Part shown: piece after piece, positions 3,875 through 52,855 of the stretch
How positions within the stretch are numbered: position 1 is the first letter of the stretch
Layout of the letters: every line of letters starts with the position of its first letter
Source: Sipunculus nudus
Lineage: Eukaryota > Annelida > Sipuncula > Golfingiida > Sipunculidae
Length of the DNA stretch: 64,000 nucleotides
NCBI GenBank assembly: GCA_026874595.1
Contig: CM049309.1
Span: 67,686,926 to 67,750,925 of the forward strand
Direction of reading: 5' to 3'
The notes under the pieces: model-generated
Seen by the model: the letters and a program-made list of their open reading frames with translations, nothing else
The model's database searches: none
Told to the model about the DNA's origin: nothing
Made by a program: the position numbers and the translations under genes

Positions 3875-4090
3875 TTTTATTGTCCCCAGCTTCTGCGGAA
3901 TGGGGACATTGATTTGGGTTTGTCTGGCCTTCTGTTTGTCTGCCCTTCTGTCTGTCCATCCGTCAGGCTTTTGTTTCAGTGTAATAACTTTCCTAAATAT
4001 TATCCAATTTCATTCAAATTTTGGTCAGTGATTGCTCTCATGCTTACCTTGGTTGGGACTGATTTTGGGGTGTCTCTCTGAAAATTTATG
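3875..4090 (+). mobile_element. 5' end fragment of a Helentron-like element (family VIII)
   Basis: After a T-run there is a hairpin, TGTCCCC (3881-3887) with GGGGACA (3902-3908), followed by a tract rich in GTCTGTCC and CCATCCGTC. This matches the 5' plan of the other Helentron-like families here. No matching 3' box, hairpin and CTAG end was found, so the right border is uncertain and the copy looks truncated. Confidence 0.4.
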
Positions 4091-4615
4091 ATCAGCAGCT
4101 CAAAAACAAAACAAAAAATACCCATTTGGTTCCCTATTCACAACCAAGAATTGTGAGATGTGGAGACTTCTTCAGGGGACAATTAAAACTAAAACACATC
4201 CACTATGACATGTGGAGCCATCTTGAGGGGAAAATAAAAAACAAAAACATATTCATAGCCCTAGCCAGAGGCTCATGCAAAGACATAAATTCCACATATT
4301 TGCTCGTTATTAAAAACCTAGGTCCCACAATAAAGTTGGAAGGGGGTTTTATTTTCTTTGATTTTTTATGCAATTATCTCATTCTGTGTGTCCTTTTGTC
4401 TGTGTCAGCTTATATTAATTAACAATATACCAAACATATATACTTTAAATATCCCATTTTACATAATCATCAAAAAAACTTGTTGTGTCAAAGTCAAAGG
4501 AATCTACAGAACACAATGACATACCCAAGGTTTGATGCAAGCAGGCTTTTGTGGGAAAGGATTTAACCGGAAGTCATGGAAACTTTTAACATAAAATTAT
4601 AATACAAGCTTGGTT

Positions 4616-6251
4616 ATTGTATCCCCAGACAAAGTCGGGGGATACTATGTTTTCATACCGGTGCCGCCGCCGCCACTGCCGCCGCATATAAATCTATTTG
4701 GCACTATAACTCAAAAAATATTTCACGGATCTTTACCAAACTTGGTATATGTATAGATATGGGTGAGAGGAAAAAGCCTATTTAAAATGAGGTCATGACC
4801 TTCTCTAGGAGAGTGTCCTTGACCATGAATAGGTCCAAATTTGGGAAAAATCACACAAATTCTTAAATATCTCAAGAAATCTTGCATGGATTGATCCCAA
4901 AATCAAGTTGATCAAAGATCATGGATTGGGTTGTCATGTTCCAGAAACTGGTGGTACCACCTGTTATTCTTTACTTGTTTTCTTGCCTTTTAATACCCCC
5001 AAAATTGCCACTTGACAGTACTGTGAGCATTATAAGTAAAAAACTAATGGACAGATTTCTTTTATTTTATGCATATACATAGATATGGGTTATGGGATGA
5101 TGTTTATTTAAATTGGGGTCATGACCTTTCCTATGAGAGTGGCCTTGACCTTGAATATTCCCATATTTGGTGAAATTCACACAAAATCTTTAATATCTCA
5201 GTAAGGGATACATGGTGTGATCCAAAAATCAAATTGACCAAAGATCTTGGTTAGCTTTGTCTTTTGCAGAAGACAGGTGGCGCCACCTTGTGTCATTTTC
5301 TCGTTCAAATGATGTTAAAGCATAACTTTGTAAGAATTTGAGGTACAGTCACAAAACCCACAGGTTTGATGCATCTTATCAACGGCTAGCTATAGTTCGA
5401 ACATGGATGACTTTGATGCATTTTTTCAAGGTCACAGCAGCGTTTATGCTAATACAGGTAGCCCACCTTGTGTCGTTTTCTTGATTTTGCGCCTGTTAAT
5501 ACCTCACCATTGCCACTTGACAGCACTGTTAGCATGATAAATTTAAAACTTAAGGACAGATTTCTTTTATATCATGCATAGATATATATATTTATAAGTT
5601 TAAAAAAATTCTTTTAAAATTTTAATTTAATTTTTTTGATTAAATCTTGGACTTTTTTCTTTTATGCAGAATACAGGTGGCGCCCCCTTGTGTCGTTTTC
5701 TTGCTTTTGCACCTGTTAATACCCCACCATTGCCACTTGACAGCACTGTTACCAGATAAATTGAAAACTAAAGGACAGATTTCTTTCATATCATGCATAT
5801 ATATATTTTTAAGTTAAAAAAAAATTTTTTTTTAAATTTTAATTTAATTTTTTTTTTAATCTTGGATTTTTTTTTCTTTTCTGCAGAATACAGGTGGCGC
5901 CACCTTGTGTCGTTTTCTTGCTTTCGCACCTTGTAATTCCCCACCATTGCCACTTCACAGCACTGTGAGCATGATAAGTTGAAAACTAATGGACGGATTT
6001 CTTTCATATCATGTATAGAGATATGGGTTATGGAATGAGATATATTTCAATTTGGATCATGACCTCTCCTATGAGAGTGACCTTTACCTTCATTATGCCT
6101 ATACTTGTAAGAAACCATGGTGGCTTGCCAAGTGTCAGTCTCTGCATCTGAATTCAAGATGGGATCCTATTCTTTGAGGCTGAGGTGGGGGGGGGGGGGG
6201 GGTTAATTGTTTGGGGATACTATGGCACCTGCAGTGCCAAGAAATATCTAG
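4616..6251 (+). mobile_element. Helentron-like non-autonomous element, family II
   Basis: The left end has GTATCCCC pairing with GGGGGATAC in a hairpin (about 4619-4647), followed by a GCC-rich tract. The body consists of divergent monomers of about 180-200 bp. Several of them carry CAGGTGGCGCCACCTTGTGTC or variants (exact GGTGGCGCCACC at 5276 and 5893). At the right end the box is repeated inverted as GGGGATAC (6213-6220). A hairpin TGGCAC-CTGCA-GTGCCA (6223-6239) follows, and the element ends CTAG (6248-6251) before TTT. The order subterminal inverted repeat, tandem core, inverted box, hairpin and CTAG is the Helentron/HINE layout. No Rep/helicase coding remains. A poly-G run lies at about 6187-6202. 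Confidence 0.65.
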
Positions 6252-12216: not shown

Positions 12217-12702
12217 CTCGGCATGCATATACATCCTGGATAGCTTTCTTGATTTTATGACAGGTGGCGCCACCTACATTCATGTTCACGCTGCAGACAT
12301 TAATGCTTATATCTTCGGAACCATTTGACCTATCAGGAAAACATTTTTACACAAATGTAGCCCTTGGATAGCTTTATAACATACACAAAAATGGTGGCGC
12401 TACCTGCAGCCATTTTTGCACAGCATCCATCTGTTTGTCTGCTGTGGGATAAAATTACTCATATCTCTGCAGTGGTTTGACTTTTCCACATGAAATTTTA
12501 CATGTGTATACATCTTGGATAGTTTCTCGTTCAAATAACAAGTGGCGCCACCTACAATCATGTTTATGTGGCAGGGATCCATTCTAATATGTAACACATG
12601 TAACTCTATATCCCCTTGCCACTCAATCCATGCCTCACTTCACCCATCCTTCTCTGATTTTGGCGGATACATGTAGTTGCTTGTCGACTACCCGTATTCT
12701 AG
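12217..12702 (+). mobile_element. Helentron-like element, family I (pearl-like), copy A, 5'-truncated
   Basis: Tandem monomers carry GGTGGCGCCACC (exact at 12263) and diverged variants. The right end has the box GGCGGATAC, the hairpin GTAGTTGC-TT-GTCGACTAC, then CCGTATT and CTAG (12699-12702) before TT. The 5' inverted box found in complete copies is missing. Orientation is given with the CTAG end as 3'. Confidence 0.65.
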
Positions 12703-12874: not shown

Positions 12875-13994
12875 TTTTAGCTCAGCTGACTGTAAGTCAT
12901 CTGAGCTATAGCGCTCACTCTTTGTCCGTTGTCCATCCGGCAGTCTGGCCATGCGGCCATCCGGCCGTCTGTATGTTAACAAGACACAAACTGTAACCAC
13001 TGGACCTGGAATCTTCTAAGTACCCTCCAGAACAATGAAAAATTTGATACAAAAGCTCAAATATCTAAACAACTTATGCTTTGATCACCATGATTTTTTT
13101 GCATGGATATTAATCATGGAGTGTTTCATCAGTTTCTGCAGACTGGTAGCACCACCTGTATTTTTTCGATTTTTTACGGGTTTTTTTTTTCTATTTTTGA
13201 GACCTCAAAAGATGCTGTCATCTGTTAACAGGGCACAAATGGTAACCACTGGACCTAGAATCTTCTCACTTTACATCCAGAGAGGTCCATGAAAAGTCTT
13301 CTTGGAAACCTGGAATTAGGTATCTGTTACCCATATTCTTCAAGCTATTGGGCTCCGAAGTACCACCCCCCCCCCCCCAGAATAATGAAAAATTTGATAC
13401 AAAAGCTCAAATATCTGAACAACTAATGCATTGATCACCATGATTCTTTGCATGGATATTGATCATGGAGTGTTCCATCAATTTCTGCAGACTTTTCTTT
13501 AGAATTTTCTTTCTTGACATGCTGGGAGGCCCTTGAAAATTCTCCTTGGAAACCTGAAATTAGGTCTCTGTCACCATATTGTCTAAGCTATGGGGCTAGG
13601 AAGTAACCCCCCCCCCCCCGGCCCCCAGAATAATTGAAAATTTGATACCAAAGTAGGGCACAAATCATAACCATATGGCCCAGAATCTTCTACCTTTACA
13701 TCCTGAGAGTTCCTCAAAAGTTGTCCCTAGAAACCTGAAATTGGGTTACAGTGACCTATATTCTCAGAGTTTTGGGGTATGTTTGAGCACCCCAGAAATA
13801 ATGCAAAATACACACAAATTGCCAGATTCCTCATGAAAGGCTGGTTGGATTGTCATCAGATTTGTTGTGCTTATGGGTCTTGATAAACTTAAGCTAATAT
13901 GCATGAACAATGATGCCACCTATCTTAATTGTCTGTGCAAGGACATATTATCAACATGTCAGGCGGCTGAGTGTCATGACCCATGGGTCACTTG
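12875..13994 (+). mobile_element. Helentron-like element, family III, copy 1
   Basis: The left end is TTTTAGCTCAGCTGACTG followed by TAAGTCATCTGAGCT, forming a long hairpin. GTCCGTTGTCCATCCGG-type sequence and a GTTAAC site follow. The core holds repeated copies of a unit with TAATGAAAAATTTGATAC, interrupted by poly-C runs near 13364 and 13608. The right end has the box GGCTGAG, the palindrome GACCCATGGGTC and CTTGTT (about 13991). A GGTAGCACCACC variant of the shared palindrome lies near 13146. Confidence 0.6.
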
Positions 13995-14642: not shown

Positions 14643-17240
14643 GTTTTTTGCTCAGCTGACTATAAATCATCTGAGCTATAGTCCTGGTCCGTCGTCCGTC
14701 GTCCGTCCGTAGATGTGGCATGTTTTGAAACTGTAAGACCTAGGAATCCAAAATTTGGCATAATGTTAGATGTCCCCAAGATCTCCTACCAAACTGAAAA
14801 CTGGGTCTTTGCAACTTTATTCCTTTGAGAAATTAAGGAAAAACCTCAATTTTTTATTAAAAACCTATTTTCACTTTTCAGGACCGCCTAATATCAAAAC
14901 TACTCATCTGTTTTTCCTCATATTTACCTTAAATATTCCCCTATATTTTTCCTATGTACATGCCAGAAATTATGTCTGTATTACATAATTTAAAAAAGTT
15001 ATGGGCCCAAACATAATGCATTTTGTAAAAAATCAGGAAAGATATTTGATCACTTAACACAAAACATGTTAAAGCTATGGACTTTTTTTCCAGTAATATA
15101 ACTTTAATTAATCAAAATTAAATTGTATACCCAAAGTTAGATCAAAATCTTTTAAATTTTTTGAAATATTAACAAAAATAAAAAACTCATACCTTAAATT
15201 TTGCCAAACTTTTACCATGGTACGTTTTTTTCCTCTAAGTACTGTGGATTTAATTTTCACAGCAGGTTTTTTTTAGCTTTTTGTCTGTTAACACCAAAAA
15301 TTTGAAACCAGTTGATCAAAAACTGTAGATTTTATTCAAGTTTTCAAGCACCATGTAACATATTGTTTACATCAAGCTAGTGTTATGCAGTTTACAAGAG
15401 CTCAGCTCCCCAGCTTCAGCTCTCAGTTCCTAAAATTTGGCATACAATTTGGAGTCTCCAAAATCCCCTACCATGCCAAGAATTGGTCACTAGGACTTAA
15501 TACCTTTCGGATATTAATGAAAAACTTCATTTTTCCATTAAAAACCCATTGTTACACTTCAAGACTGCCTAATATCAAAACCACTGGTCTGACTTAAATC
15601 ATATATAATATACTTATTTTTCTATACATTCTGTATGCACATGCCAAAAATGATGTCAGTATTGCGTAATTGTTTTAAGTTATGGGCCCAAACATAATGC
15701 ACTTTGTAAAAAATCGAGAAATATATTTACTCCCTTAACAAGAGGATTGCTGAAGCTAGAGATTTTTTGTCAGGGATGTAACATTATTTTATCAAGATTC
15801 AATTGAATGCCCAAAATTAGTTCTGAATTTTTCAAATTTTATAAGTTATTAGTATAAATATAAAATTAGTACCTTAAATTTTGCCAAACTTTGACCATGG
15901 CACGTTTGTTTCCTGTGAGCACAGTTGATATAATTTTCATATCATGCACACATAAGGATTTCAGCTTTTTAGTTTAGAAAGCTGAAAGAAATTGGCCAAA
16001 AATTGTAGCTTTTATTAATGTTTTTTTGAGACCTTAGCTCTCCCCAGTCCCTCTTGAGTTACCTGTATGTTGACCTTGTTGACCTTTCATCAGATTATGC
16101 ACGCTTGACACGAAGCATACACTGGGGCAGCCAGGCAGCTTATGGCCAGCCACAGTTGATCCAGGTGTCCAACCCAACTCATCTAGTAGTTTTAACTAAC
16201 AACATAACAATAAATTAATAAATTTTTATTGGTTTTTATTATCAAATTAAAGAAAAATGGAAAAGGAATTTGTTAGTTGATAATAACAGGAATCTAACTT
16301 GCAGTTACTGATGATATAAGAATCTTGTATGGATTGATAGAATGTCACGTATTCCAAATAACACCATGCAGTCACCTATGGAATTTTTTCAGTTCAATTT
16401 TAATGATAAAAAAATAAATCATATTATTCATTACTAATCATTAGGGATCATATGAAGGAAATTAATGATAGACAAAGATGCAGTTGATAATATTATTCTA
16501 GATTCCTGCTGTGTCTAGTGTGTACACTGATGTGAAATTAGTCCAAAATGAATATATTACATTTACTTTTTTTAATATGAATAAAAGCCATAAAACCAGA
16601 AACTTGTGATCATTATTTAAATGTGTGAATTTTGTATATTCTAGATTCTCAACATCATTGTTGGGTGAAAACTGAATAAATACCAGACATGGTGCGAATA
16701 CTTTGCAAATGTATTTGAATACGAATATGAATATGTACTCCATTATAAAATTTCTTGCATGAGAATGGGAATTCAGGTAAAAATGAAAGTATATGAATAC
16801 CAGTGCAAATACTTTCAAAATGTATTCATGAATGCATTCATGAATATATTCTTTGATATTATTTTAATAAACATTTCAGTTTTATTTTATTTTAAAAAAT
16901 CATACGATTCTTTTATTATTTTTAATAAAAATTATATTTGGGACAATTTGAAATTATTTAAAAAAATAGTTAAACTCTTATATTATATGTTCTGCTTATA
17001 AATAATATGGCCAAGTCAAAATCTGTGTGACAATAGCACTCCATTTGTTAATAAAATAAATGAAATAAATCCTCTTCCCCTTCTCCAAAATACTATCAAA
17101 ATCATACATAAGCTCAACACCTACAACTCATAATACAGCTTATATTTATTTCCACACAAAACAAGCATGTTCCTCATTTCTAAATCATATTTTTTTATCA
17201 TATATATCAGCTGAGCGCCGTGACCCTTGGGTCCCTTGTT
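14643..17240 (+). mobile_element. Helentron-like element, family III, copy 2, carrying an internal insertion
   Basis: It begins GCTCAGCTGACTATAAATCA with the paired CATCTGAGCTATAG and a (GTCCGTC)n tract, and ends CAGCTGAGC, then GACCCTTGGGTCCCTTGTT (17222-17240). Two long diverged monomers start near 14720 and 15420; both include AAAATTTGGCATA, CCTACCA and CCTAATATCAAAAC. The segment at about 16490-17190 belongs to another family and explains why this copy is longer than copy 3. No coding sequence. Confidence 0.6.
16490..17190 (-). mobile_element. Partial copy of the long-arm element family seen at 46231-48255
   Basis: Read on the reverse strand, this segment matches the interior of the 46231-48255 element in order. 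Shared landmarks are TTTTGTGTGG and TAAGCTG, then TTTTGACTTGGCCATAT, then TATGGAGTACATATTCATA, then TCTGGTTTTATGGCTT. The GATC-rich terminal arms are absent. It lies inside family III copy 2. Boundaries are approximate. Confidence 0.55.
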
Positions 17241-19885: not shown

Positions 19886-20710
19886 CTAGAATACAGGTAG
19901 TCGACAAGCGACTACGTGTATCCGCCTAAATCAGAGTGGAACGGGTGAAGTAAGGCATGGATTAAGTGGCAAGGGGAAATAGAGTGAAGTGTTGCATATT
20001 AGCATGGATGTCTGCAGCCAAATTGTGTATGAAGGTTGCCCCCCCACCACAAAATCCAGAAAGCCGTCCAAGTATACATATGCAAAATTTAAGGCAGATA
20101 AGTCAAACCACTACATGTATATGAGTGATTTTAGCCCGTGGCAGCCAATCAGATGGAAGCTGAGCAAAAATGGTTGCAGGTGACGCCACCAGTTTTGCGT
20201 ATGATAAAGAGCTATGTGAGAACTATACACATGCAAAACTTTGGCCTAATCGGTCAAACGGTTCCCAAGATATGAGCTTGGATGTCTGCTGCATAAACTA
20301 GAATGCAGGTGGCGCCACCTGTCATAAAATAAGAAAAGCTATCCAGGATGTATACGCATGCCGAATTTCAGGTGAATTAGTCAAGTCACTGCAGAGATAT
20401 GAGTGATTTTAACCCAAGGCAGACAAACAGATGGACACTGTGCAAACATGGTTGCAGGTGGCGCCACCATTTTTTGTGTATGTTATAAAGCTCTCCAAGA
20501 GCTACGTTTGTGCAAAAAAAATTTTCCTGATCCGTCAAACGGTTCCCGAGATATGTGGGTTTATGTGTAGAAACAGACGCACAAACGGACGCAGAGCGCA
20601 GAGGAAAGGTCAGAGGTCAAAACAAAATTGGGGTGCAGCAATTCACATGTGACCCGAACATAATCCCGGGTTTCGTAAAATTCCGCCCAGCGGTTACGGA
20701 GAAGTTCACA
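19886..20710 (-). mobile_element. Helentron-like element, family I, copy B
   Basis: The CTAG end lies at 19886-19889, followed inwards by the hairpin GTAGTCG-ACAAG-CGACTAC and the box GTATCCGCC. Monomers carry GGTGGCGCCACC (exact at 20308 and 20457). The unique segment with GACGCAGAGCGCAGAGG and CAGCGGTTACGGAGAAGTTC is present. The sequence then diverges from complete copies at about 20710, so the opposite inverted box is missing. Confidence 0.65.
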
Positions 20711-32000: not shown

Positions 32001-32690
32001 TTGAATATTGACTATGACTAGTTTTGTCAGTTCCTGAAACGTGGTGGCGCCACCTGTATTTTTTCTATTTTAACAAATATTTTTCTATTTATTTACTAAA
32101 AATAAACTGGCTTCAAACTTGATTTAATAATGACCAACCACATAAGTAAATTCATTTTGATTACCAGGGTCCAGCCATCTTAAGTTGAAGGTCACAGGAG
32201 CCACATCTTTAAAAAGATTGTGGATGCACTGTAAATCAAACTTTTCATCCTGAACTTTCCAACGTTCACACATGGCTTACTTGCCTAAAGTGAGGAAACC
32301 TGTAGAATTTGAGGTTATCTGGTCAGAGGTCAAGGTCACTTTTTAAAAGATTGTTACAATAATCCTAATGCTGCAAGTTCAAGGATATTAAGTTCTAAGA
32401 TTTTTTGGTCACAAGGTCATTGGTTAAGGTCACAGGACTGTCAGTCTGAAAAATTTCTTTAAAAATATCCTTATAGACAAATTCAGCTGAGCATTGAGAC
32501 CCATGGGTCCCTAGTTGTGTTGTGTGCACCCATGCCAGAATTTCAGCAGTGATGTTTGTGTAATTGTTTCTTATTCAAAATGTTTAGTACCTGCATTGTT
32601 CATATACATGAGAAGTAATGTTCCAGCATTGAAGCATTATACCTGGTGTATTTCCCAATGCACAGGTTAGCATTAGGCCTGTAGGCCTTG
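29079..32690 (+). mobile_element. Helentron-like element, family IV, copy 1 (hosts a family III insertion)
   Basis: The 5' end is TTTTTAGCGAACCTGTGAGC, then GGTCGTCGGTCGTCTG and GTTAACC. The 3' end carries the box inverted as CACAGGTTAGC (32661 onward), then the hairpin AGGCCT-GT-AGGCCT and CTTG before TTT (32690). The core has diverged repeats with CTTCTTCTCC and CCAAATTGT-type motifs and GTATTGGTGGCGCCACC (29523). A smaller internal array reads AAGAGTTCACTCAGTGCAGC (about 30990-31290). Family III copy 4 is inserted at about 31718-32514. The assignment of both ends to one element rests on the matching boxes and on the same pairing in copy 2. Confidence 0.55.
31718..32514 (+). mobile_element. 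Helentron-like element, family III, copy 4, nested in family IV
   Basis: It begins TTTTAGCTCAGCTGAGGTG with GTCCGTTGCC and GTCCGGCTGTCCG, and carries GTGGTGGCGCCACCTG (box at 32043). It ends TTCAGCTGAGC, then GACCCATGGGTCC and CTAGTT (CTAG at 32511-32514). The internal region resembles copy 1 (GAATCTTCT/GAAACTTCTACG, GATACAAAA). Part of the 5' hairpin is missing. Confidence 0.6.
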
Positions 32691-34826: not shown

Positions 34827-37303
34827 TAGCGAACCTGTGAGCTTATGCGAAGGTGCGGTGTCGAGCGTCGTCTGTCATGCGTCGTGCGTCGTCTGTACGT
34901 TAACCATAGCTATCTCAAAAATGGCAGGAGCTAGCATCACCAATTTTTTTGCAAATAATTAGTCATCTGAAAAACTCTATCGGATTTTTATGCCCCCGCC
35001 ACAAAGTGGCCGGGGCATATAGTTTTACCCATGTCCGTCATTCCGTCCTTCCGTCATTCCTAAATTAAACAGTTGTACGGACTTTTTTTTCGCAATGCCT
35101 GCAGATATTGGCCTAATTTTTGGTGTGTGGGCAGATATAGACCAGTTACAGATCGAGTTCGCGTTTCGTCCTGGTTGACCTACTTTTGACCGTTTTACGG
35201 CTCCTGAACATAGAAAATTTCATGAAAAATATGAAATTTCATGACAAATACACATGTACGGACTTTTTTTCGCAGTGCCTGCAGATATTGGCCTGATTTT
35301 TGGTGTGTGCACAGATATAGACCAGTTACAGATCGAGTTCGCGTTTCGTCCCGGTTGACCTACTTTTGACCGTTGTACAAACATAGAAAATTTCATGAAA
35401 AATAGAAATATTCATGAAAGATACACATGTACAGACATTTTTTCGCAATGCCTGCAGATATTGGCCTGATTTTTGGTGTTGGGGCAGATTTAGACCTGTT
35501 ACAGATCGAGTTCACGTTTCGTCCTGGTTGACCTACTTTTGACTGTTTTACGGCTCCTGAACATAGAAAATTTTTATGAAAAATATGAAATATCATGACA
35601 AATACACATGTACGGACTTTTTTTCGCAATGCCTGCAGATATTGGCCTGATTTTTGGTGTGTGGCCAGATATTGACCAGTTACAGATTGAGTTCGCATTT
35701 CGTCCTGGTTGACCTACTTTTGACTGTTTTACGGCTCCTGAACATAGAAAATTTCATGTAAAACATAAATTTTCATGACAAATACACTTTTACAGACTTT
35801 TCATCACAATACCTGCAGATATTGGCCTGATTTTTGGTGTGTGGGCAGATAATGACCAGTTACAGATCAAGTTCACGTTTTGTCCCAGTTGACCTATTTT
35901 TGACCGTTTGACGGTGCTCTAACAAAGAAAATTTCATAAAAAGGTGCATATGTATGGACTTTTTTTCGCAGTGCCTGCAGATACGGGCCTGATTTTTGGT
36001 GTGTAGGCAGATAATGACCAGTTACAGATCGAGTTCTTGTTTTCTCTCAGTTGACCTACTTTTGACCATTTGACTGCTCCTGAACATAGAAAGTTTCATG
36101 AAAAATATAAATTTTCATAACAAATGCATATGTACTTACTTTTTTTCCTCAATGCCTGCAGATACCACCCTGATTTTTTATGTGTGGGCAGATAATGACA
36201 GTTACAGATCGAGTTCGCGTTTCATCCCGGTTGACCTACTTTTGATTGTTTTACGGCTCCTAAACATAGAAAATTTCATGAAAGACAGAAATTTTTATGG
36301 AAAATGCACATGTATGGACTTTTTTTCACAATGCCTGCATATACTGGCATGATTTTTGGTGTGTTGCTTGATAATGACCCGTTACAGATCGAGTTTGCAT
36401 TTTGCCCTTGTTGACCTACTTTTGACCATACGACACCTCCTGAACTTAAAAAAATTTTCAAAATTTTACAAATGTTTCTAATTTGCCCAAGGCGGGGGCA
36501 TTCGTGTTGTTCCGACACATCTAGTGTTTATTTTTTTTCTAACTGCATTTTCTTAGATTTTATAGGGAAAAAGCTAAAAAAGCTTTAAAAATCTTCTTCT
36601 CCAAAACTGTCCAGCCAAATTGTCCAATATTTCACAGAAATGATCCGTGGAATAATCTCTCTCAAGTTTGTTTGAATGGTTCCAGTTTGGAGATTTTTGG
36701 CTGAGTTACAGGAGGTTGAACTTAGTCATCTGTCCAAAAAAGCACACTAAATTAAAATCTCAGAAACAGCTAGAGCTATAATCACCAAATTTTATACCAA
36801 TGTTTGTCACATATGTCATATCTGAAATTGAGGTATTGGTGGCGCCACCTACATTGATCTTTTTTTTACAAGCGAAAATGTAATTTTAAACTTTTCTAGC
36901 TTATACACTGATTTATGATGAAATTGTTAAGCTGATTGGTTTAAACTTTACAAGAATTATTCTATGGTAGGGTTCTGCCAGTTTTATAAGAATAGATAGG
37001 GTAAATAAAGCTTTAAAAAAGCATTGTAGCCAATTGAAAAAGGCTTTCTGTGTTTGAAAACAGATTTGACAACATGCTGAGTTTCAGCAGCTAAGTCAAG
37101 AGGTCACTCAGTACAACCAGGTGGGGTCCAGACATCACCATGGCAACTGACCTGGCTCTGGCGCATGTCTAGACAATGTGTATGGACATCTAGACACAGC
37201 GTCTAGACGTCTAGACACAATTTCTAGCACAGAATTCCCAGATTATTGGAACTATATCTTTCAGCTGTTTGAAAAAAGATTTGTCATCTAAAAAATTATT
37301 GGA
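34827..37303 (+). mobile_element. Helentron-like element, family IV, copy 3, split by a family V insertion
   Basis: The 5' end, TTTTTAGCGAACCTGTGAGC (34827 on), is followed by GTCGTGCGTCGTCTGTACG and GTTAACC. Sequence matching copy 1 then breaks at about 34988 and resumes at about 36525. It runs through CTTCTTCTCCAAAACTGTCC and the box GGTGGCGCCACC (36838) to a CACTCAGTACAACCAGG segment like that of copy 1. The 3' inverted box and hairpin are not seen before copy 2 starts, so this copy is 3'-truncated or was overwritten. Confidence 0.55.
34989..36524 (+). mobile_element. Helentron-like element, family V, copy 1, nested in family IV
   Basis: The left end is a 14-bp-stem hairpin, TATGCCCCCGCCAC-AAA with its complement (34989-35019, one mismatch), then GTCCGTCATTCCGTCC. 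The core has about eight tandem monomers of about 180 bp, recognised by CGCAATGCCTGCAGATA and GTTGACCTACTTTTGA, starting near 35075, 35254, 35427, 35606, 35786, 35948, 36128 and 36309. The right end has the inverted box GGCGGGGGCAT, the hairpin GTGTTGTTCCGACAC and AT-CTAG (36521-36524). Both flanks continue as family IV sequence. Confidence 0.72.
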
Positions 37304-39055
37304 TTTTTAGCGAACCTGTGAGCTTATGCAATGTTGCTGCATCGTCCATCACGTGTCAGTGCATCGTTCTTCGTCTCTAGTTAACCATACCTATCTCAAA
37401 AATGGCAGGAGCTAGCATCACCAAATTTTTTGCAAATAATCAGTCATCATTTGTTTATTTTTTTTTCTAACTGCATTTTCTTAGATTTTTGCACAGCGTC
37501 CATCTGTTCATCTGCCTTGGGATAAAAACACTCATATCTCTGCATTGGTTGGACTTGTCGACTTGAAATTTTGCATATGTTTACATCTTGGACAGCTTTC
37601 TTGATTTTATGACAGGTGGGGCCACCTACATCATGTTTAAGCTGCGTCAGACATCCAAGCTCCTATCTTGGGAACCGTTTGACCAGTTGGGTCAAAATTT
37701 TGCATGTATATAGATCTCCCATAGCTCTTTATCATACGCAAAACTGGTGGCACCACCTGCAACAATTTTTGCACAGCGTCTATCTGTTCATCTGCCTTGG
37801 GATAAAATCACTCATATCTCGGCAGTGGTTTGACTTATCCACCTTAAATTTTGCAGGTTTATACATCCTTGACAGCTTTCTTGAATTTATGGCAGGTGGC
37901 GCAACCTACATTCAAATTTACACTGCAGACATCCAAGCTCATATCTCTGGAACCATATGACCGATTGGGCAAAAATTTTGCATGTTTATAGATCTCACAT
38001 AGCTCTTTATCATACGCAAAACTGTTGGCGCCACCTGCAATCATTTTTGCACAGTGTCCGTCTGTTTATTTGCCATGGGATAAAATCACTCATATGTCGG
38101 CAATGGTTTGACATTTCTGCCTAAAATTTCTTGATTTTGTGGCAGGTGGCACCACCTACATTTATGTATGCGCTGCAAACATTCAGGCTTATATCTCAGG
38201 ACTGGTTTGACATATCCGCCTGAAATTTCTCTTGTGTATAGATCTCACATAGCTCTTAATCATACACAAAATTGTTGGCGCCACCTGCCACAATTTTTGC
38301 ACAGCATCCGTATGTTTTTCTGCCGTAGGCTAAAATCACTCATGTCTCAGTAGTGGTTTTACTTATCTGCCTAAAATTTTGCATGTTTATACATTTTGGA
38401 TAGCTTTCTCGATTTTGTGGCAGGTGGCGCCACCTACATTTATGTATAAGCTGCAGACATTCAGACTTATATTTCAGGACTGGTTTGACATAACCCCCTG
38501 AAATTTTGCATGTGTATAGATCTCACATAGCTCCTAATCTTACACAAAAGTGATGGCGCCAACTGCCAACATTTTTGCACAGCGTCCGTCTGTTTGTCTG
38601 CCAAGGGCTAAAATCACTCATATCTCGTTAGTGGTTTGAATTGTCTGCCTAAAATTTTTCATGTTTATACATCTGGGACAGTTTTCTGGATTTTGTGGTA
38701 GGTGGCGCAACCTACATACACATTTCGGCTGAAGATATTCAGGCTAATATGCAACACACTTCACTCTATTTCCCCTTGCCACTCAATCCATGCCTCACTT
38801 CACCCGTCCCACTCTGATTTTGGTGGATACAAGTAGTCACTTGTTGACTACCCGTATTCTAGATTTTGTGTTGTGTGCACCCATGGTAGATTTTCAGCAG
38901 TGATGTTTGTTTAATTGTTTCTTGTTCTAAGTGTTTAGTTCTTGCATTGTTCATATACATGTTACACATGTTCTTGAAAAGTAATGGTCCAGCATTGAAG
39001 CATTATACCTGGTGTAATCTCATTGCACAGGTTCGCATTAGGCCTGTAGGCCTTG
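37304..39055 (+). mobile_element. Helentron-like element, family IV, copy 2, hosting family I copy D
   Basis: It starts TTTTTAGCGAACCTGTGAGC and ends with CACAGGTTCGC (39027 on), the hairpin AGGCCT-GT-AGGCCT and CTTG before TT (39055). The last 190 bp match 32515-32690 (GTGTTGTGTGCACCCATG; GTGATGTTTG; GAAGCATTATACCTGGTGTA). Most of its length is the family I insertion at about 37486-38862, so little of its own core remains. Confidence 0.6.
37486..38862 (+). mobile_element. Helentron-like element, family I, copy D, nested in family IV
   Basis: It contains about nine monomers whose GGTGGCGCCACC-type boxes alternate at spacings of about 130 and 149 bp (37615, 37746, 37895, 38024, 38145 and on; exact box at 38423). 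The right end has CACTCTGATTTTGGTGGATAC, the hairpin GTAGTCAC-TT-GTTGACTAC, CCGTATT and CTAG (38859-38862). The 5' inverted box and unique segment of complete copies are absent. It is the longest array of this family here. Confidence 0.65.
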
Positions 39056-39358: not shown

Positions 39359-40388
39359 ATGCCCCCGCCACAAAGTGGCCGGGGCATATAGTTTTACCCA
39401 TGTCCGTCCTTCCGTCATTCCGGAATCAAACAGTTGTACGGACTTTTTTTCGCAATGCCTGCAGATATTGGCCTGATTTTTGGTATGTGGGCAGATATAG
39501 ACCAGTTACAGATCGAGTTGGCATTTTTTTCCCCAGGTTGACCTACTTTTGATTTTTTACGGCTCCTAAACATAGAAAATTTCAAGAAAAATATAAATTT
39601 TCATGACAAATGTACATGTACAGCCGTTTTAGCCCTCAGCTCATAGGCTGATGGGCTACTGTCGTCACCCAAGCTGTCCATCTGTCCGTCCGTCTGTCTG
39701 TCCATCCGGAGTCTGTCCATCCTGCATCTGTTAACTTTTACCTTGTGAGCGGGATATATATATCTCTAAAAGGATTCACCGTTGCAATTTTATTTCATCA
39801 GTGAATATGTATATCGTTAAAATCTCGGCCAAGTTCGAAGATGGGTAGCCTTGACCCATTTTTCTACATTTTAGAGCTGATTATACAAAAACACTCAAAA
39901 GCTTATATCTCAAGAACCATATGGTGGATTGTTATGAAACATGGTACATACCTCTCCAATTTAAATTTATAACTGATTATCAGCTTTTGCTAATATCCTA
40001 GTTTTGCAATGCAGTGCTTACAGATACTGGCCTAATGTTTGGTCTGTGGGCGCATAATGACCACTTACAGATCAAGGTCGTGTTTTGTCCCAGTTGACTG
40101 TTTTTATGACCATATGACAGATCCTGGACATAGAAAATTTCATGAAAGACAGAAATTTTTATGAAAAATGCACATGTATGGACTTTTTTTCACAATGCCT
40201 GCAGATACTGGCCTGATTTTAGGTGTGTTGCTTGATAATGACCCATTACAGATCGTGTTTGCATTTTGCCCTTGTTGACCTACTTTTGACTATACGACAC
40301 CTCCTTAATTTAAAAAAATTTTAAAAATTTAGCAAATGTTTCTAACTTGCCCAAGGCAGGGGCATTCGTGTCGTTCCGACACATCTAG
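39359..40388 (+). mobile_element. Helentron-like element, family V, copy 2, hosting a family VI insertion
   Basis: The left hairpin matches copy 1 (TATGCCCCCGCCAC and complement, 39359-39389), as does GTCCGTCCTTCCGTCATTCC. The core is shorter than in copy 1. The right end has GGCAGGGGCAT, the perfect hairpin GTGTCG-TTC-CGACAC (40368-40382) and AT-CTAG (40385-40388) before TTT. The core is interrupted at about 39626-40001 by another element. Confidence 0.72.
39626..40001 (+). mobile_element. Short Helentron-like element, family VI, nested in family V copy 2
   Basis: It begins TTTTAGCCCTCAGCTCATAG, which folds with GCTGATGGGCT, followed by GTCCGTCCGTCTGTCTGTCC and GTTAAC. It carries ATATCTCAAGAACC, a motif shared in diverged form with other families. 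It ends with a weak hairpin around CAGCTTTTGCT and CTAG (39998-40001) before TTT. Family V sequence resumes immediately after. At about 375 bp it has a single monomer. Confidence 0.5.
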
Positions 40389-40807: not shown

Positions 40808-41993
40808 CTAGAATACGGGTAGTCGACAAGCGACTACCTGTATCCACCTAAATCAGAGTGGAATGGGTGAAGTGAGGCATGGATTGAGTGGCAAGGGGAA
40901 ATAGAGTGAAGTGTTGCATATTAGCATGGATGTCTGCAGCCAAATTGTGTATGTAGGTTGCGCCACCTACAACAAAATCCAGAAAGCCGTCCAAGTTGTA
41001 TACATATGCAAAATTTAAGGCAGATAAGTCAAACCACTACATGTATATGAGTGATTTTTGCCCTTGGCAGACAAACAGATGGACGCTGTGCAAAAATGGT
41101 TGCAGGTGGCGCCACCAGTTTTGCGTATGATAAAGAGCTATGTGAGAACTAAACACATGCAAAACTTTGGCCCAATCGGTCAAACGGTTCCCAAGATATG
41201 AGCTTGGATATCTGCTGCATAAACTAGAATGTAGGTGGTGCCACCTGTCTTAAAATCAAGAGAGCTGTCGGGGATGTATAAACCTGCAAAATTTTAGGCA
41301 GATATGTCAAACCAGTGCCGAGATATGAGTGATTTTATCCCATGGCAGACAAATAGACGGGAGCTGTGCAAAAATGGCTGCAGGTGGCGCCACCAGTTTT
41401 GTGTATGATAAAGAGATATGTGAGATCTATACACATGCAAAATTTTGGCCTAATCGGTCAAACGGTTCCCGAGATGAGCTTGGATGTGAGCAGCATAAAA
41501 CGTGAATGTAGGTGGCACCACCTGTCATAAAATCAGAAAAGCTCTCCAGGATGTATACGCATGCCGAATTTCAGGTGAATTAGTCAAACCACTACAGAGA
41601 TATGAGTGATTTTAACCCAAGGCAGACGAACAGATGGACACTGTGCAAACATGGTTGCAGGTGGTGCCACCATTTTTTGTGTATGTTATAAAGCTCTCCA
41701 AGGGCTACATTTGTGCAAAAAAAATTTTCCTAATCAGTCAAACGGTTCCCGAGATATGTGGGTTTATGTGTGGAAACAGACGCACAAACGGACGCAGAGC
41801 GCAGAGGAAAGGTCAGAGGTCAAAACAAAATCGGGGCGCAGCAGTTCACATGTGACCCGAACAAAATCCCGGGTTTCGTAAAATTCCACCCAGCGGTTAC
41901 GGAGGAGTTCTCCGGACACCTAAGCGGCCGCGGCGGCGGCGGCGGTGGGCTGAAAACATAGAATCTGCAAAACTCTTGTTTTGGCGGATACAA
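40808..41993 (-). mobile_element. Helentron-like element, family I, copy E, apparently complete
   Basis: The CTAG end at 40808-40811 is followed by the hairpin GTAGTCG-ACAAG-CGACTAC and TGTATCCACC-TAAATCAGAG. The other end carries CTCTTGTTTTGGCGGATACA (to about 41992). Boxes GGTGGCGCCACC lie at 41105 and 41383, and single-base variants at 41234, 41511 and 41660. The unique segment with GACGCAGAGCGCAGAGG and CAGCGGTTACGGAGGAGTTC precedes a GGC/CGG triplet run at about 41925-41946. No coding content. Confidence 0.75.
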
Positions 41994-44819: not shown

Positions 44820-45478
44820 TATTAGGGCCCTACCTGACAGGCGGTACTCTACAGTGGTCACCATGTCAGTCAGTCCCTCCATACTTCCGTCCTTCGGATC
44901 TTCAGTCAGTGACACTTTCTTTCACACGCCATAACTCAACAACAACATATTTCAGCTTTCCCAAATTCACAGGGATGATTGGTACATATAAGGGCTCCAG
45001 ACCTATTGAATTACAGACATGTTGGCCACCAATATGGCCACCACAGCCCAATGGCTGATTTTCTTTCACACACGATAACTCAACAGCAACACTCTTCAGC
45101 TTTGCCAAATTCACAGGGATGATTGGTACCTATGAGGATACTATCCCTATTGTATAACACATTCCAATGTGGCCACAAGAGCACAGTAAGTGATTTATTT
45201 TTTGCACCCTCCATCTCAACAAGAACATGCTTGTTCTTTATCATTTACAGAGAGATGATTGGTACCGTTAAGGTCTCCATCTTTATCGAATTGCAGCCCT
45301 GTCAGAATTCTGATACGGCCACCAGAGCACAATCGTTGATTTTCTTTCGCGCGCAATATCTCAACAAGAACATGCTTGATCTTTCTCAAATTAACAGGGA
45401 TCATTGGTGTCTTCGAGGGCTTCTGACCAATTGAATTACAGACTTGTTCAAAATCAAATATGGTTAAGAGAGCAAAAC
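44820..45478 (+). mobile_element. Helentron-like element, family VII, copy 1, 3'-truncated
   Basis: It starts TTAGGGCCCTACCTGACAGG, which folds on itself as in copy 2, followed by GTCAGTCCCTCCATACTTCC. About four monomers of about 150 bp follow (CACAGGGATGATTGGTACC; GATAACTCAACA). No 3' box, hairpin or CTAG end is present. Confidence 0.6.
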
Positions 45479-46221
45479 TGTGAATTTGTATAGATGATCA
45501 GGTTGTGCATCCTCTGGTGTCTGTACAGTGATGTTTGTGTAAGTGCTTTCTAGTTATCCTGGTGGAGTGCTTTGGCTGTCTATGGCCATGTAATGCAGTC
45601 ACATAATGAGTTCATCATAGGTCCAGTCATTTGTGGCAGGTAATAAAAACCCTACAGCAGACAGTTTGCCAATATTCTGTGATGAATTACACAGCAGTCT
45701 GCTTGTGTGACATGACAGAATACCAATCAAGTTATAAACTGTCAGAGAGTCGCAGTATACTAGATGTAAAGTCATATCACAGTCACTCATTTAGCATGAT
45801 GCTCTCTCTGCAACAACCTTTGCTGGCATTTCCATCTTTAATCAGCCAGATCCCTATTTCTGTATTCCCGAATGAGAAATATGTTGGCATGCTTGCTTCA
45901 CATAAATATGCCTCAATTGTAAGCAGGTTTATAATATGAAAACATTAGAAAGACTACTGTATAGATTATGGGCTGATGTGATCATTGATGTAAAGGTTTG
46001 CAGATTTAAACTCAGTGGCACTGATTACACTTGAACACAATTTAAATGGACATTTTGGTTTCACCATTGTATATCAGTTACCCAATGTTTTGTACAGATT
46101 TGCATAAAAAGAATGTATGACCATTGGGCCTTTCGTTGGCAATGACAGAATACCATGACAACTTTTGGTGTGATACTTCCCATAGAAAAATCATAACCAA
46201 CAGACCTAGGAGGTTCACCTA
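45479..46221. other. No recognised feature
   Basis: DIPP intronic sequence without identifiable repeats or exons. Confidence 0.4.
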
Positions 46222-46230
46222 TATATATAT

Positions 46231-48600: not shown

Positions 48601-48685
48601 AACCAAGTCAAGAAGACCAGGACATCAGTGTATGTGTTAATAGTATCAGAATTTATTGATGTATGGGAAGAGGCACAAAGCATGG
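48601..48685 (+). CDS. NUDT3: DIPP (NUDT3-type) exon 3
   Basis: The exon encodes NQVKKTRTSVYVLIVSEF and on to WEEAQSMG, the Gly codon being split over the next junction. It aligns with the vertebrate NUDT3 segment NQERKHRTYVYVLIVTEV...WEDSVNIG, including the beta-strand core VYVLIV and the conserved Trp. It enters in phase 0 from the previous exon (…GIFE|NQ) and leaves after one base of the codon, with donor G|GTAAGA. The preceding intron is about 15.5 kb and is filled with nested repeats. There are no internal stops and both splice sites fit the consensus, so the gene looks functional at this point. Confidence 0.92.
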
Positions 48686-49049
48686 GTAAGAGTTTTATAT
48701 GATCATCTCAAGTAATTCACTCTTGTTTCACCACCGCTTGTCCACTGATGTTATGCCTCTACATTTCCATTGAGGAAACAGCAAACTTACCTTCTAGGGG
48801 ATGTAAATGATAGAGTATAATGAGTATAAACTGCAAAATTCATGACAGTGATCCCAAGGAAAAAAATAAGCATATATATTATATAAGCCCTGTTTACAAA
48901 AATATATGATACATGTAGTATTTGTCTTGCATTTATTATTTAGTATTTTATTATCACCAAATAGCAAGGCTATTTCCTCTTAGCTTTTCAAATGCTAATA
49001 TGTAAAAAAATTGAAATAAATACATTCTACATCTGCTTAAATTTAAAAA
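48686..49049. other. Start of the last DIPP intron
   Basis: AT-rich, with no recognised feature before the family III fragment. Confidence 0.45.
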
Positions 49050-49086
49050 AGTTCAGCTGAGCGTCGTGACCCATGGGTCCCTTGTT
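49050..49086 (+). mobile_element. 3' end fragment of a family III Helentron-like element
   Basis: TTCAGCTGAGC is followed by GACCCATGGGTCC and CTTGTT, identical in layout to the 3' ends of copies 1-4. No matching 5' end was found upstream, so this appears to be a terminal relic; the body may be too diverged to see. Confidence 0.55.
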
Positions 49087-51418
49087 TTCACTAGCAATCC
49101 CATTGCTGATTAGCTGCAAGTTGCCATTTAGCCTTGGACTGCACTGAATGGAAAATGCTGTAGATTTGTTATCCTTGCTGATCATCACTGGGAGAGAGCT
49201 TTTGGCCATAATAGCGTAGGGTACCAGCAGGAGTTTTGGTAACAGGTACATTTGGGGACACCTGTGGGACTGCTAAATCATTTAGCAATATTTTTTTAGG
49301 GCAGATCTCATGTCAGCCTTGGTTCGGTTGTGAAAAATACACTGCTGACCCTGTGCCTTAATTGCCAGGTTAAACAGACCTGGCACATGACGGGTTGGGA
49401 ACTACGCCAGAAGACAACCGGTGGCGCAGGACATGAATAATGAAATCAGAGCGACCTTTTCAAAACCTACCATATTTATCCCAGTGCAATCACACACAAC
49501 TGTAGTGAATGCGGACACTAACTGTTGTGCAAGGTTCACTGGGAACCATGCTAAATATCAACCTGGAATGCCTTCTATGAATATTAAAAACAGGTCGATG
49601 TGCCACATTTGCAGGCTAAAATTGTCAACTAACACAGTGGAATGTATGTAACAAATTTATCTTGTATTAAATAATTTATGGAGTACTAACAGCATACAAA
49701 GGTCCACAGACATGTTATTCACAGATACAGAACAAAGTACATGGAAATGAAACAATGTAAGGTAGATCTTTTTATCGCTCACTCACAAATCTGGTAGATC
49801 AAATATCCAAGCAACAACAAAAACTATTTAATGATTTTTTATTGTTTAAATTCCAAGTTCAGAGCTAGTAATTATTTAATTCTTTTCGAATTAATTAAGA
49901 GTGTACAGTAGTCTAAATTAACTGACAGTTATGGGTGGGTCTACATTCTAGCTAGCAGTCAGGGAACATTGAATTTTACATGTAAATAGAATTTGGGTGA
50001 ATGTGCTCAATCTGGAGAGACCCCCTCAAGATTAGGCGCGGTCCAGCACTACTTGCTACTACTACAACTACTACATATGCTCAGTTCATATTACCATGTG
50101 TAAATGTGATGTGAGATCTTGATAGAGCTTGACAAACACAGCCTAACGCAAAAGTTTAGAGCAGTTTATATGGTCACTTGGTCCAGCCCAGTGTGAATAC
50201 CATATGAAATATAGAGCAAGCAAGGTTTTGTCAGATCATGCCAGATCTTTCTAGTGTAAATGGAGCTGTTGTAGACACAGATCAGCTGCTCTGCCTTCTG
50301 AACAGTCTGAAATCAGTAATCAGTTCAAGCAAAATGGCTTTCCATGTGAGGAGACCTTTCACTTCACAGGAAACAGTCTAGACGTTATATATAAATATAG
50401 ATTATGTGATCATTTTTATGCCAGTTCTGGTTGTTACATCAATGTTTTTCTGCTGTTAAATTTGAGGAATTGGTAAGCTTTCTCTTATTGATAACAGAAT
50501 CACCAGACACAAGCAGGGCACTGGATCATTTAAACAAAGAGGATATTATAATTCTGTTCTATTGTAAGTGTCACAGCTTGGATCCAAAGCTAAATATAAA
50601 CGCAAACTAGAAATCTGCATTCTAAAGAATGCAAGCCTCTGCCTAGTCTGCCATGGGGGGGGGGGGGGGTTCCCTTTTTTGGGATCCTTCCAAAAGGGTT
50701 TTTGCGTTCACATATTTGGCCCATATTCGCAAGTTCATTCACGCATAAGTGACTGTACATTTGTGAATATTCCTCTATGACATTCCTGAATCTGGATCAT
50801 GTGCCAGGTCCACACCAAAATCTAATCGATTCTTCATTAGCCCATTCCCGTAATACCCTGAAAATTATATGAGATTGCATTCATGATTGCATGTGTTAGG
50901 TTGAGAACAAATGCATGCATGAACAAGGATGGCAACATACCCTCATGGTTAAGGCAGTAAATGTTGGTTCAGTTTACAATGTGAGGTAATCCAGGACAGT
51001 TGATGGTGACCTTTCATGCAGTGCTAGTCTTTTCATGAGATATATCATCTATATAATTAGGATTCGCTGAAAAGGGTATAATACACTTTAGTTATAAGAG
51101 GTAAGGTGGTGTTAAAATTTCCAAGGTAAAATTAAAAATTTTCTAGCTCTGTCAACCAGTCCCTCCAAATATACCTGTAGAAGAACTTCTTAATGGAAAT
51201 TCCTATGCAAACCACACCAGAATTGAAGAAATTTTTTAGTCAGTATCTTCATACACAGAAGATGAAAAGGTTCAAAATATAATATTCCCAACCATGTTTT
51301 CCCATAAAAGTGATATTCTTAATTTCAAAGTCCCAATATACTAGGACTTGAAACACATGGAATAAAACAATTTTAAATATTTGTCTTCCAACAAATTAAT
51401 TAAAAAATAAATGAATAA
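49087..51418. other. DIPP intron without recognised genes
   Basis: A poly-G run lies at 50656-50669. Two short frames (49027-49251 on -, 49421-49651 on +) are unassigned. A repeat relic is possible but no termini were found. Confidence 0.4.
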
Positions 51419-52855
51419 TTAGGGCCCTGCTTGACAAGCGGTGCCCTATAGTGATCAACGTGTCAGTCCGTCCATCCGTCCTTCCGTCAGTGACACTTTC
51501 TTTCGCGTGCAATAACTCAACAACAACATACTGCTGCATTCTTAAATTCACAGGGATGGTTGGTACCAATGAGGGCTCAAGACCAATTGAATTACAGACC
51601 TGTCAGAATTTCAATATGGCTGCCACAGCCAGATCACTGATTTTCTTTCGCGCATGATAACTCAACATCAACATACTGCAGTTTTCAGAAATTCACAGGG
51701 ATGATTGGTACCTATGTGGGCTCCAGACCTATCGAATTACAGACTTTTCGTAATTCCAATATGGCTGCCACAGACCGATCGCTTATTTTTTTCGCGCATG
51801 ATAACTCAACAACAACATACTGCAGCTTTCCCAAAATCACAGGGATGGTCAATACCAATGAGGGCTCCAGACCTATCGAATTACAGACTTTTCGTAATTC
51901 CAAAATGGCTGCCACAGACCGATCGCTTATTTTTTTCGCGCACGATAACTCAACAACAACATACTGCAGCTTTCCCAAAATCACAGGGATGGTCAATACC
52001 AATGAGGGCTCAAGACCAATTGAATTACAGACCTGTCGGAATTCCAATACGGCCGCCATAGCCCGATCACTGAATTTCTTTCGCGCGCGATAACTCAACA
52101 ACAACATACTGCAGTTTTCCCAAATTCACAGGGATGATTGGTACCTTTGAGAGCTCCAGACCAAATGAATAACAGATCTGTCTGAATTACAATAAGGCCG
52201 CCAAAGGATGATCGCTGATTTTCTTTTGCGCTCAATAACTCAACAACAACCTACTGCAGTTTTCCCAAATTCACAGGGATGATTAGTACCTATCAGGGCT
52301 CAAGACCAATTAAATGACAGACCTGTTGGAATTCCAATATGGCGGCCATAGCCCGATTGCTGATTTTTTTTTGTGCGCGATAACTCAACAACAACCGTCA
52401 GCAGCTTTCCCCAATTGACAGGGATGGCTGGTACCAATAAGGGCTCAAAACCAATTAAATTACAGACCTGTTGGAATTCATATATGGCAGCCACAGCCTG
52501 ATTGCTTATTTTCTTTTGCACACGATAACTCAACAACAACCCACTGCAACTTTCCCAGTTTCACAGGGATCATTGGTGCCTATGAGGGCTCCAGACCTAT
52601 TGAATTTCAGACTTGCTCAAAATCAAATATGGCTAACAGACAACATTCGGTGATTTTCTATTGCACACATTATTTCAGACATATCTTTAATATCATTTGA
52701 TCCAGTACCATTTTTTCCCTCATGGATATTGATAAAAACCTGTTTCTATTTGTGATATTTTTAAAATTTTACTTAATTTTTCACCCATATGTAAACTAGT
52801 TCAGCACTAGCAGAAATGCGGGGCCCTCTGAGGACCATTGTCTGACCGCATCTAG
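51419..52855 (+). mobile_element. Helentron-like element, family VII, copy 2, complete
   Basis: The 5' end TTAGGGCCCTGCTTGACAAG folds with GCGGTGCCCT; GTCAGTCCGTCCATCCGTCC follows. About eight monomers of about 150 bp carry CACAGGGATGATTGGTACC, AATTACAGACCTGT, AATATGGCNGCCA and CGATAACTCAACAACAAC. The 3' end has GGGGCCCT, a long stem ATGCGG with CCGCAT, and CTAG (52852-52855) before TTT. Open frames run through the monomers on both strands and are not genes. Confidence 0.72.

What the first reader, a model, noticed from the sequence alone, without database searches (positions are those of the whole stretch)
3875..52855. At least seven unrelated repeat families share one Helentron-type terminal plan
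Seen: families II (4616-6251), I (five copies), III (four copies plus a 3' fragment), IV (three copies), V (two copies), VI and VII (two copies) have different sequences but the same order. That order is a T-rich start; a 7-12 bp box, usually in a hairpin; a tandem-repeat core; the same box inverted; a short hairpin; then CTAG or CTTG, usually followed by TT. Examples of 3' ends: TGGCAC/GTGCCA then CTAG at 6251; GTGTCG/CGACAC then CTAG at 40388; GACCCATGGGTC then CTAG at 32514. Known: HINE elements mobilised by Helentrons have subterminal inverted repeats, tandem cores and a 3' hairpin. Inference: one Helentron machinery has moved all of these, and the terminal plan rather than the sequence is what it recognises.
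Basis: partly seen in the sequence, partly recalled or inferred. Interest (0 to 1): 0.8.

Follow-up and report, generated by a model that had tools for sequence, protein, structure and literature searches.

The report
Helitron2-type repeats sharing end hairpins
A stretch of animal-type DNA is packed with small rolling-circle jumping elements (HINEs) of several families that differ in sequence but keep much the same folded ends, a design already known from Helitron2/Helentron elements, here with an unusually uniform 5' hairpin in several families and a 14-letter palindrome shared by the middles of others.

Summary
Mostly confirmed. Copies stop exactly at CTAG/CTTG; 15 of 17 3' ends are followed by TT, and all 15 confirmed 5' ends follow TT. 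The 5' box matches the inverted 3' box of its own family (true pairing best of 5040 permutations). Twelve of 13 complete elements lack a credible target duplication. This is the published Helitron2/Helentron-HINE plan (PMC3627910, PMC4067079, PMC7492417). The autonomous partner could not be sought: no genome is held.
Corrections: the families are not all unrelated. IV and V share ends but not cores; I, part of III and probably II and V share a core module around the palindrome AGGTGGCGCCACCT (39 hits, 0.62 expected). III lacks the 5' hairpin, VI a clear 3' hairpin, E9 the 3' box.
New detail: five of seven end types have at least one copy with the same 5' hairpin design (one interruption, 3-4-nt loop): 7 of 15 5' ends. 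The 3-nt-loop form occurs 8 times in the window (6 element ends) against 4 in 60 shuffles. This fits shape recognition; it does not show one machinery. New members of a known kind.

The parts
4619..6251 (+). Family II element; 5' box GTATCCCC with 27-nt hairpin, 217-bp core repeats, 3' box, TGGCAC/GTGCCA hairpin, CTAG
12218..12702 (+). Family I copy without 5' end, ends CTAG|TT
19886..20707 (-). Family I copy without 5' end, ends CTAG|TT at 19886
28004..28898 (-). Family I copy, both ends
37485..38862 (+). Family I copy without 5' end, nested in III; ends CTAG|A, not TT
40808..41991 (-). Family I copy, both ends
12879..13994 (+). Family V element (AGCTCAGCTGA ends, V core), ends CTTG|TT
31723..32514 (+). 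Family V element nested in III, 5' hairpin degenerate, ends CTAG|TT
14650..17238 (+). Family IV element (same ends as V, different core), ends CTTG|TT; pairing of these two ends is inferred from position
25480..27400 (+). Family IV element; 3' end found here (pairing inferred from position); flanks share a 9-bp word TTTGGTCTG
49053..49084 (+). Orphan IV/V 3' end (box, hairpin, CTTG|TTTT) with no 5' end found
29083..32690 (+). Family III (AGCGAACC) element, ends CTTG|TT; interrupted by V
34828..37300 (+). Family III copy with 5' end only, interrupted by E7; 3' limit approximate
37309..39055 (+). Family III copy, both ends, interrupted by a truncated I copy
34990..36524 (+). ATGCCCC family (E7) element, ends CTAG|TG, nested in III
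39359..40388 (+). ATGCCCC family (E7) element, ends CTAG|TT; interrupted by E9
39631..40001 (+). E9, 371-bp element nested in an E7 core repeat; 5' hairpin, CTAG|TTTT; 3' box not found
44824..45500 (+). Family VI copy with 5' end; 3' end not found, limit approximate
51421..52855 (+). Family VI element, 145-bp repeats, ends CTAG|TT; no clear 3' hairpin
3881..3930 (+). 5' end-like hairpin (TGTCCCC/GGGGACA), no 3' end found; unconfirmed
20757..20800 (+). 5' end-like hairpin (GTCCC/GGGAC), no 3' end found; unconfirmed

Best explanation
These are non-autonomous rolling-circle elements of the Helitron2/Helentron group (HINEs) in an animal-type genome. Shown: a T-rich start, a 5' box that in most families folds with its own downstream inverse, a tandem or repeated core in all but E9, the same box inverted, usually a 3' hairpin, then CTAG or CTTG, inserted in T-rich DNA without a typical duplication. 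Inferred: a Helentron Rep/helicase acting in trans nicks at the 5' T, displaces one strand, and stops when the 3' box meets the 5' box and the 3' hairpin/CTWG is reached; the single strand then enters a T run. Box, its inverse and 3' box change together between families, which fits a pairing role, as Bao and Jurka proposed for Helitron2. Cores and ends have been exchanged between families.
For: Copies break at CTWG; 15 of 17 3' ends followed by TT, 15 of 15 confirmed 5' ends preceded by TT; box/3' box pairing best of 5040 permutations; box/own inverse reached by 6 of 5040; 5' hairpins; 12 of 13 elements without a credible duplication; empty sites for E9 and E7 without a duplication beyond T bases. 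Same plan in PMC3627910 (section 9 and passages), PMC4067079 (section 6 and passages) and PMC7492417 (sections 7, 8 and passages). GTCY-type microsatellite near the 5' end as in oyster HINEs: 10 of 17 5' ends (two unconfirmed among the 10) are in the top 5% of background; I, II and E7 are not.
Against: No Rep/helicase seen: 8 of 16 frames of 110 or more residues were scanned and no genome is held. III lacks a 5' hairpin, VI a clear 3' hairpin, E9 the 3' box. Two 3' ends are not followed by TT. One element (25480-27400) has a 9-bp word in both flanks. E9's empty-site comparison leaves about five or six bases beside the T run unmatched. Of eight 3' ends folded, only E7 is clearly more stable than its shuffles.
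Confidence: 0.92

Rival explanations
1. One Helentron machinery moves all families and recognises end shape (5' hairpin design, 3' hairpin, CTWG) rather than box sequence.
For: E7 and IV have the same 31-nt dot-bracket with 10 of 13 pairs changed on both sides and none broken; 8 stable single-interruption, 3-nt-loop hairpins in the window, 6 of them element 5' ends, against 4 in 60 shuffles; all 7 hairpins of this kind with a 3-4-nt loop and a following TAG/TATG/CTG word are element 5' ends, shuffles 0.
Against: Only 7 of 15 confirmed 5' ends pass; III has no such hairpin, I an imperfect one; box sequences differ by family; published HINEs share sequence with their own partner (PMC4067079, PMC7492417, passages). 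The descriptor was chosen after seeing the elements.
Confidence: 0.3
2. Each family has, or had, its own autonomous Helentron with matching boxes; the common plan reflects common descent of the machinery.
For: Box sequence is family-specific at both ends; partner-specific sequence is the published pattern in mite, mosquito and fly (PMC4067079, PMC7492417, passages).
Against: In the oyster, 10 autonomous elements could not be tied to any Cg_HINE (PMC7492417 passage); the shared hairpin design is not required by this model.
Confidence: 0.55
3. The families are ordinary terminal-inverted-repeat miniature transposons.
For: Inverted boxes near both ends; one element with a 9-bp shared flank word.
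Against: Boxes are asymmetrically placed, at the 5' end but 19-32 nt inside the 3' end; 12 of 13 elements have no credible duplication.
Confidence: 0.03
4. Segmental duplication or satellite spread produced the repeats without transposition.
For: Tandem cores; related flanks after 32514 and 38862.
Against: Those flanks are family III sequence into which V and I are nested; elsewhere aligned copies lie in unrelated flanks with sharp ends.
Confidence: 0.04

Closest known systems
Helitron2 group (Bao and Jurka 2013, PMC3627910)
   Different: No coding element is seen here; cores are tandem repeats; 3' ends are CTAG/CTTG; three of their families (CRe-1 to 3) carry 7-19-bp target duplications
Cg_HINE elements of Crassostrea gigas (PMC7492417)
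   Same: Eleven elements in one genome; subTIR, complementary IR, GTCY microsatellite, tandem core, 3' subTIR, palindrome; related ends with unrelated cores; T-rich sites, no duplication
   Different: Sequences could not be compared (figures and supplementary tables not available); no AGGTGGCGCCACCT palindrome in the sections and passages read
DINE-1 and HINE-Mo (PMC4067079)
   Same: subTIRs, IR near or within the 5' subTIR, 3' palindrome, TT targets, no target modification, variable T number
   Different: subTIR 38-60 bp from the 3' end in the mite against 19-32 nt here
FoHeli1/FoHeli2 of Fusarium oxysporum (PMC5148889)
   Same: 5' hairpins with a 3-nt loop, asymmetric inverted repeats
   Different: Shorter stems, different 3' ends and target; coding elements

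Membership tests
Helitron2/Helentron HINE | Asymmetric inverted boxes: at the 5' terminus and subterminal at the 3' end | tested here: met
   6 of 7 end types, true pairing best of 5040 permutations; 3' box ends 19-32 nt from the end; E9 not met
Helitron2/Helentron HINE | 5' hairpin or IR involving the box | tested here: met
   II, IV, V12, E7, VI, E9 clear; I imperfect; III not met, V31 lost
Helitron2/Helentron HINE | 3' palindrome close to the 3' end | tested here: met
   II, I, E7, III, IV/V by sequence symmetry; VI not, E9 weak; stability clearly above shuffles only in E7
Helitron2/Helentron HINE | Insertion in T-rich target, no typical target duplication | tested here: met
   15 of 15 5' and 15 of 17 3' flanks; 12 of 13 without duplication; two empty sites
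Helitron2/Helentron HINE | Shared ends with an autonomous Rep/helicase(/endonuclease) element | not testable with these tools
   no genome held; 8 of 16 long window frames scanned without a helicase
Cg_HINE subtype | GTCY-type microsatellite after the 5' IR | tested here: inconclusive
   enriched in IV, V, III (2 of 3), VI (1 of 2), E9 and the two unconfirmed ends; not in I, II, E7
Canonical Helitron (Helitron1) | 5' TC, insertion between A and T, no 5' hairpin | tested here: not met
   none of the tabulated 5' boxes begins TC, T flanks, 5' hairpins

The most novel reading that the evidence does not exclude
A single Helentron-type Rep in this genome recognises the shape of the 5' end (an imperfect 27-31-nt hairpin with one interruption and a 3-4-nt loop, after a T run and before a TAG-like word), while box sequence is free to drift as long as the 5' box, its inverse and the 3' box change together; this would let new cores be captured and new families arise without a new transposase.
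Probability: 0.22. Interest if true: 0.65.

Novelty: new member of a known kind. Interest (0 to 1): 0.42.

Why it matters
As far as I know (not searched exhaustively), what a Helentron Rep recognises is not established, and in the oyster no autonomous partner could be assigned to the HINE families (PMC7492417). Families with different boxes but one hairpin design in one genome give ready-made substrates to test shape against sequence recognition. The shared core palindrome, which contains the fly CTCF consensus AGGTGGCG on both strands, shows that such elements can spread many copies of one short motif.

Tried and rejected
Looking for relatives in IMG/VR: a 14-base pattern gave what I take for chance matches (120 stretches, 80 listed, none read) and three longer patterns found nothing. 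Own-genome search: none held. Strict automatic scan of the whole plan: excess over shuffles but low sensitivity and partly wrong pairings. 3' hairpin stability: only E7 is clearly better than its 200 shuffles (0 as good); II 12, III 24, I 33, VI 42, E9 61, IV 132, V 145, so the other 3' hairpins rest on sequence symmetry and agreement of copies. CTCF idea: the palindrome contains the fly consensus quoted in PMC5462476 (one passage), and all 28 AGGTGGCG octamers of the window (both strands) lie in the intervals I assign to elements, about 22 kb. But the octamer is only a core, there is no binding evidence, and the palindrome may simply be inherited with the core or serve DNA folding; left as a lead. 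A paper search for GGTGGCGCCACC found one paper, on a bacterial chitinase; the searches gave nothing on it. Figures and supplementary tables of the oyster paper could not be read.
Full report
What was checked. No whole genome is held for the window. It contains an exon of a diphosphoinositol polyphosphate phosphohydrolase (NUDT3) homologue at about 32940-33095 (Pfam NUDIX 8.8e-12; best solved-structure matches are that enzyme) and probably another at 48601-48687 (no Pfam match for this short piece; assigned by eye). Many of the repeats therefore probably lie in an intron of an animal gene. The organism is unknown; that it looks molluscan is my recollection of such repeats, not a result.

Ends. 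Self-BLAST and alignments fix the ends. Family I: five 3' ends alike up to CTAG and unlike each other after it. The ATGCCCC family (called E7 here) and III behave the same way, and the five IV/V 3' ends agree up to CTTG/CTAG. I count 17 3' ends (11 CTAG, 6 CTTG): I 5, IV/V 5, III 2, E7 2, II 1, VI 1, E9 1. Fifteen of 17 are followed by TT; the exceptions are 38862 (A) and 36524 (TG). In the window 100 of 836 CTWG words are followed by TT. Fifteen confirmed 5' ends all follow at least two T. Two further hairpins, at about 3881 (which also follows TT if the stem is counted from 3882) and 20757 (which does not), have no 3' end; I leave them unconfirmed. New against the finding: the 3' end at 27400, which completes the 25480 copy, the orphan 3' end at 49084, and E9 (39631-40001), a 371-bp element inside an E7 core repeat. 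Four 3' ends lack a 5' end (three of I, and 49084); two confirmed 5' ends lack a 3' end (III at 34828, VI at 44824).

Boxes. For one representative of each of seven end types (II, I, E7, V31, III, VI, E9), the first 14 nt were compared with the reverse complement of the 3' segment. The true pairings score 61.0 in sum and no other of 5040 pairings reaches that. Six of seven are clear; E9 scores 4.5 with itself and 7.0 and 6.0 with V and VI, so its 3' box is not established. For the box against its own downstream inverse, 6 of 5040 pairings reach the observed sum; this test used the V copy at 31723, whose hairpin is degenerate, and III, which has none.

5' hairpin design. Folding as DNA gives the same structure for E7 and for IV/V (copies 25480 and 12879): counted with the terminal T, eight pairs, a 1x1 mismatch, five pairs, a 3-nt loop. 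Between E7 and IV 10 of 13 pairs differ on both sides and none is broken. II (27 nt, 1x1 mismatch, 3-nt loop) and VI (27 nt, one unpaired base on each side, 3-nt loop) have the same design; E9 has a 1-nt bulge and a 4-nt loop. I then folded every TT-preceded position on both strands. Stable hairpins of at least ten pairs number 23 in the window and 204 in 60 shuffles. Those with one interruption and a 3-nt loop number 8 of 23 against 4 of 204. Of the 8, six are element 5' ends (4619, 12878, 25479, 34989, 39358, 51421) and two are one palindrome near 56 kb read on both strands. Hairpins with one interruption, a loop of 3-4 and a TAG/TATG/CTG-like word after them: 7 in the window, all element ends, 0 in the shuffles. 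So 7 of the 15 confirmed 5' ends pass, from five of seven end types; the two of I, the three of III, IV at 14650, V31 and VI at 44824 do not. The descriptor was made after seeing the elements, so this shows rarity, not a blind prediction. In PMC5148889 (passages) two Fusarium Helitron2-type elements also have 3-nt loops.

3' hairpins. They are visible in II, I, E7, III and IV/V, but only E7 folds clearly better than its shuffles (0 of 200; II 12, III 24, I 33, VI 42, E9 61, IV 132, V 145 of 200 as good or better). VI has no clear hairpin.

Targets. Of 13 complete elements, 12 have no shared flank word beyond what mismatched flank pairs give; one (25480-27400) shares TTTGGTCTG, 5 nt and 1 nt from the ends. 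In 156 mismatched pairs the longest word reached 10 once (T-rich), otherwise at most 8. Removing E9 gives 8 T against mostly 7 in uninterrupted repeats (8 in one, 4 in another of 7), with about five or six bases beside them unmatched; removing E7 from III gives 6 T against 3 and 4. So no duplication beyond a few T is seen; these could belong to the element or the target. PMC4067079 (section 6) reports the same ambiguity. PMC3627910 (passages) reports duplications as rare in one Helitron2 family (one of 200) and usual in three others (CRe-1 to 3).

Related, not unrelated. IV and V have nearly the same ends; BLAST finds no similarity between their cores. I and II share much of the 5' end (GTATCC...GATAC TATGTTTTC). 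The core palindrome AGGTGGCGCCACCT occurs 39 times with up to 3 mismatches (0.62 expected). I assign 37: II 4, I 25, III 5, V 2, and one beside the unconfirmed hairpin at 20757; I dropped two 3-mismatch hits (4210, 61216). The 60 nt before the palindrome were compared in register (103,560 overlapping background windows). Trained on I: III-B 3 of 3 above all background; II rank fractions 0.0006, 0.001, 0.033, 0.15; V 0.004 and 0.013; III-A 0.023 and 0.013; the 20950 site 0.22. Trained on V: II 0.00001, 0.0002, 0.005, 0.076, and one of two alternating monomer types of I mostly scores high, but the other type, III-A and III-B do not. Trained on II: V 0.004 and 0.0008, the same monomer type of I mostly high, III-A not. 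The 30 nt after the palindrome show the relation only for two of three III-B sites, with weak signals in III-A. So I and III-B share a core module, II and V probably do, III-A is uncertain; no palindrome hit falls in the cores of E7, IV, VI or E9. Within family I the palindrome is among the most conserved blocks (0.946 and 0.945 against 0.67-0.86 for 60-nt flanks). Its centre mostly decays from CG to TG or CA (12 of 13 changes at those two positions), as methylated CpG does (inference).

What it works like and what it is. The anatomy is that of Helitron2/Helentron HINEs. PMC3627910 (section 9) describes the same order and proposes that pairing of the two boxes undoes the 5' hairpin and sets the end of rolling-circle replication. 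PMC7492417 (sections 7 and 8 and passages) describes 11 HINE elements in one oyster genome with the same order, related ends with unrelated cores, and no identifiable autonomous partner. The plan and its coexistence in many families are therefore known. What I add is the common hairpin design, the concerted change of three segments across families of one locus, and the shared core palindrome. Searches for the palindrome in print: GGTGGCGCCACC is held by one paper, on a bacterial chitinase. Searches bearing on Helentron ends: none of the titles or abstract openings listed claims a common hairpin geometry, but I read parts of only seven papers (PMC4067079, PMC7492417, PMC7992393, PMC3627910, PMC5148889, PMC8268682, PMC5462476), none whole.

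Judgement on the inference. One machinery is possible, not shown. Shape recognition predicts the design found in about half of the ends; family-specific partners predict the family-specific boxes found. Only the autonomous elements of the same genome can decide.

Noticed in passing
32940-33095 and about 48601-48687: Exons of a NUDT3-type (diphosphoinositol polyphosphate phosphohydrolase) gene, the second by eye only; a dense element cluster lies between them, probably in an intron.
   Followed up: partly
core repeats of I, II, III, V: Palindrome AGGTGGCGCCACCT, 39 hits against 0.62 expected; contains the fly CTCF consensus AGGTGGCG on both strands.
   Followed up: partly
1352-1981 +: Open frame with Tc5-type and CENP-B N-terminal DNA-binding domains, probably a pogo-like transposase fragment.
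   Followed up: no
46219-48267: About 280-bp inverted repeats, 94% identical, bounding a 2-kb stretch between TA-rich flanks; part of its interior matches 16507-17204 in reverse.
   Followed up: no
7467-8121: 162-bp inverted repeats, 97% identical, perhaps a miniature inverted-repeat element.
   Followed up: no
54134-57655: Inverted pairs of about 131-240 bp spanning 3.5 kb, a foldback-like element.
   Followed up: no
25480-27400: HINE whose flanks share TTTGGTCTG, a possible rare target duplication.
   Followed up: partly
49053-49084: Orphan HINE 3' end a few hundred bases after the probable exon at 48601, with no 5' end found; compare one-ended insertions of Helitron2.
   Followed up: partly
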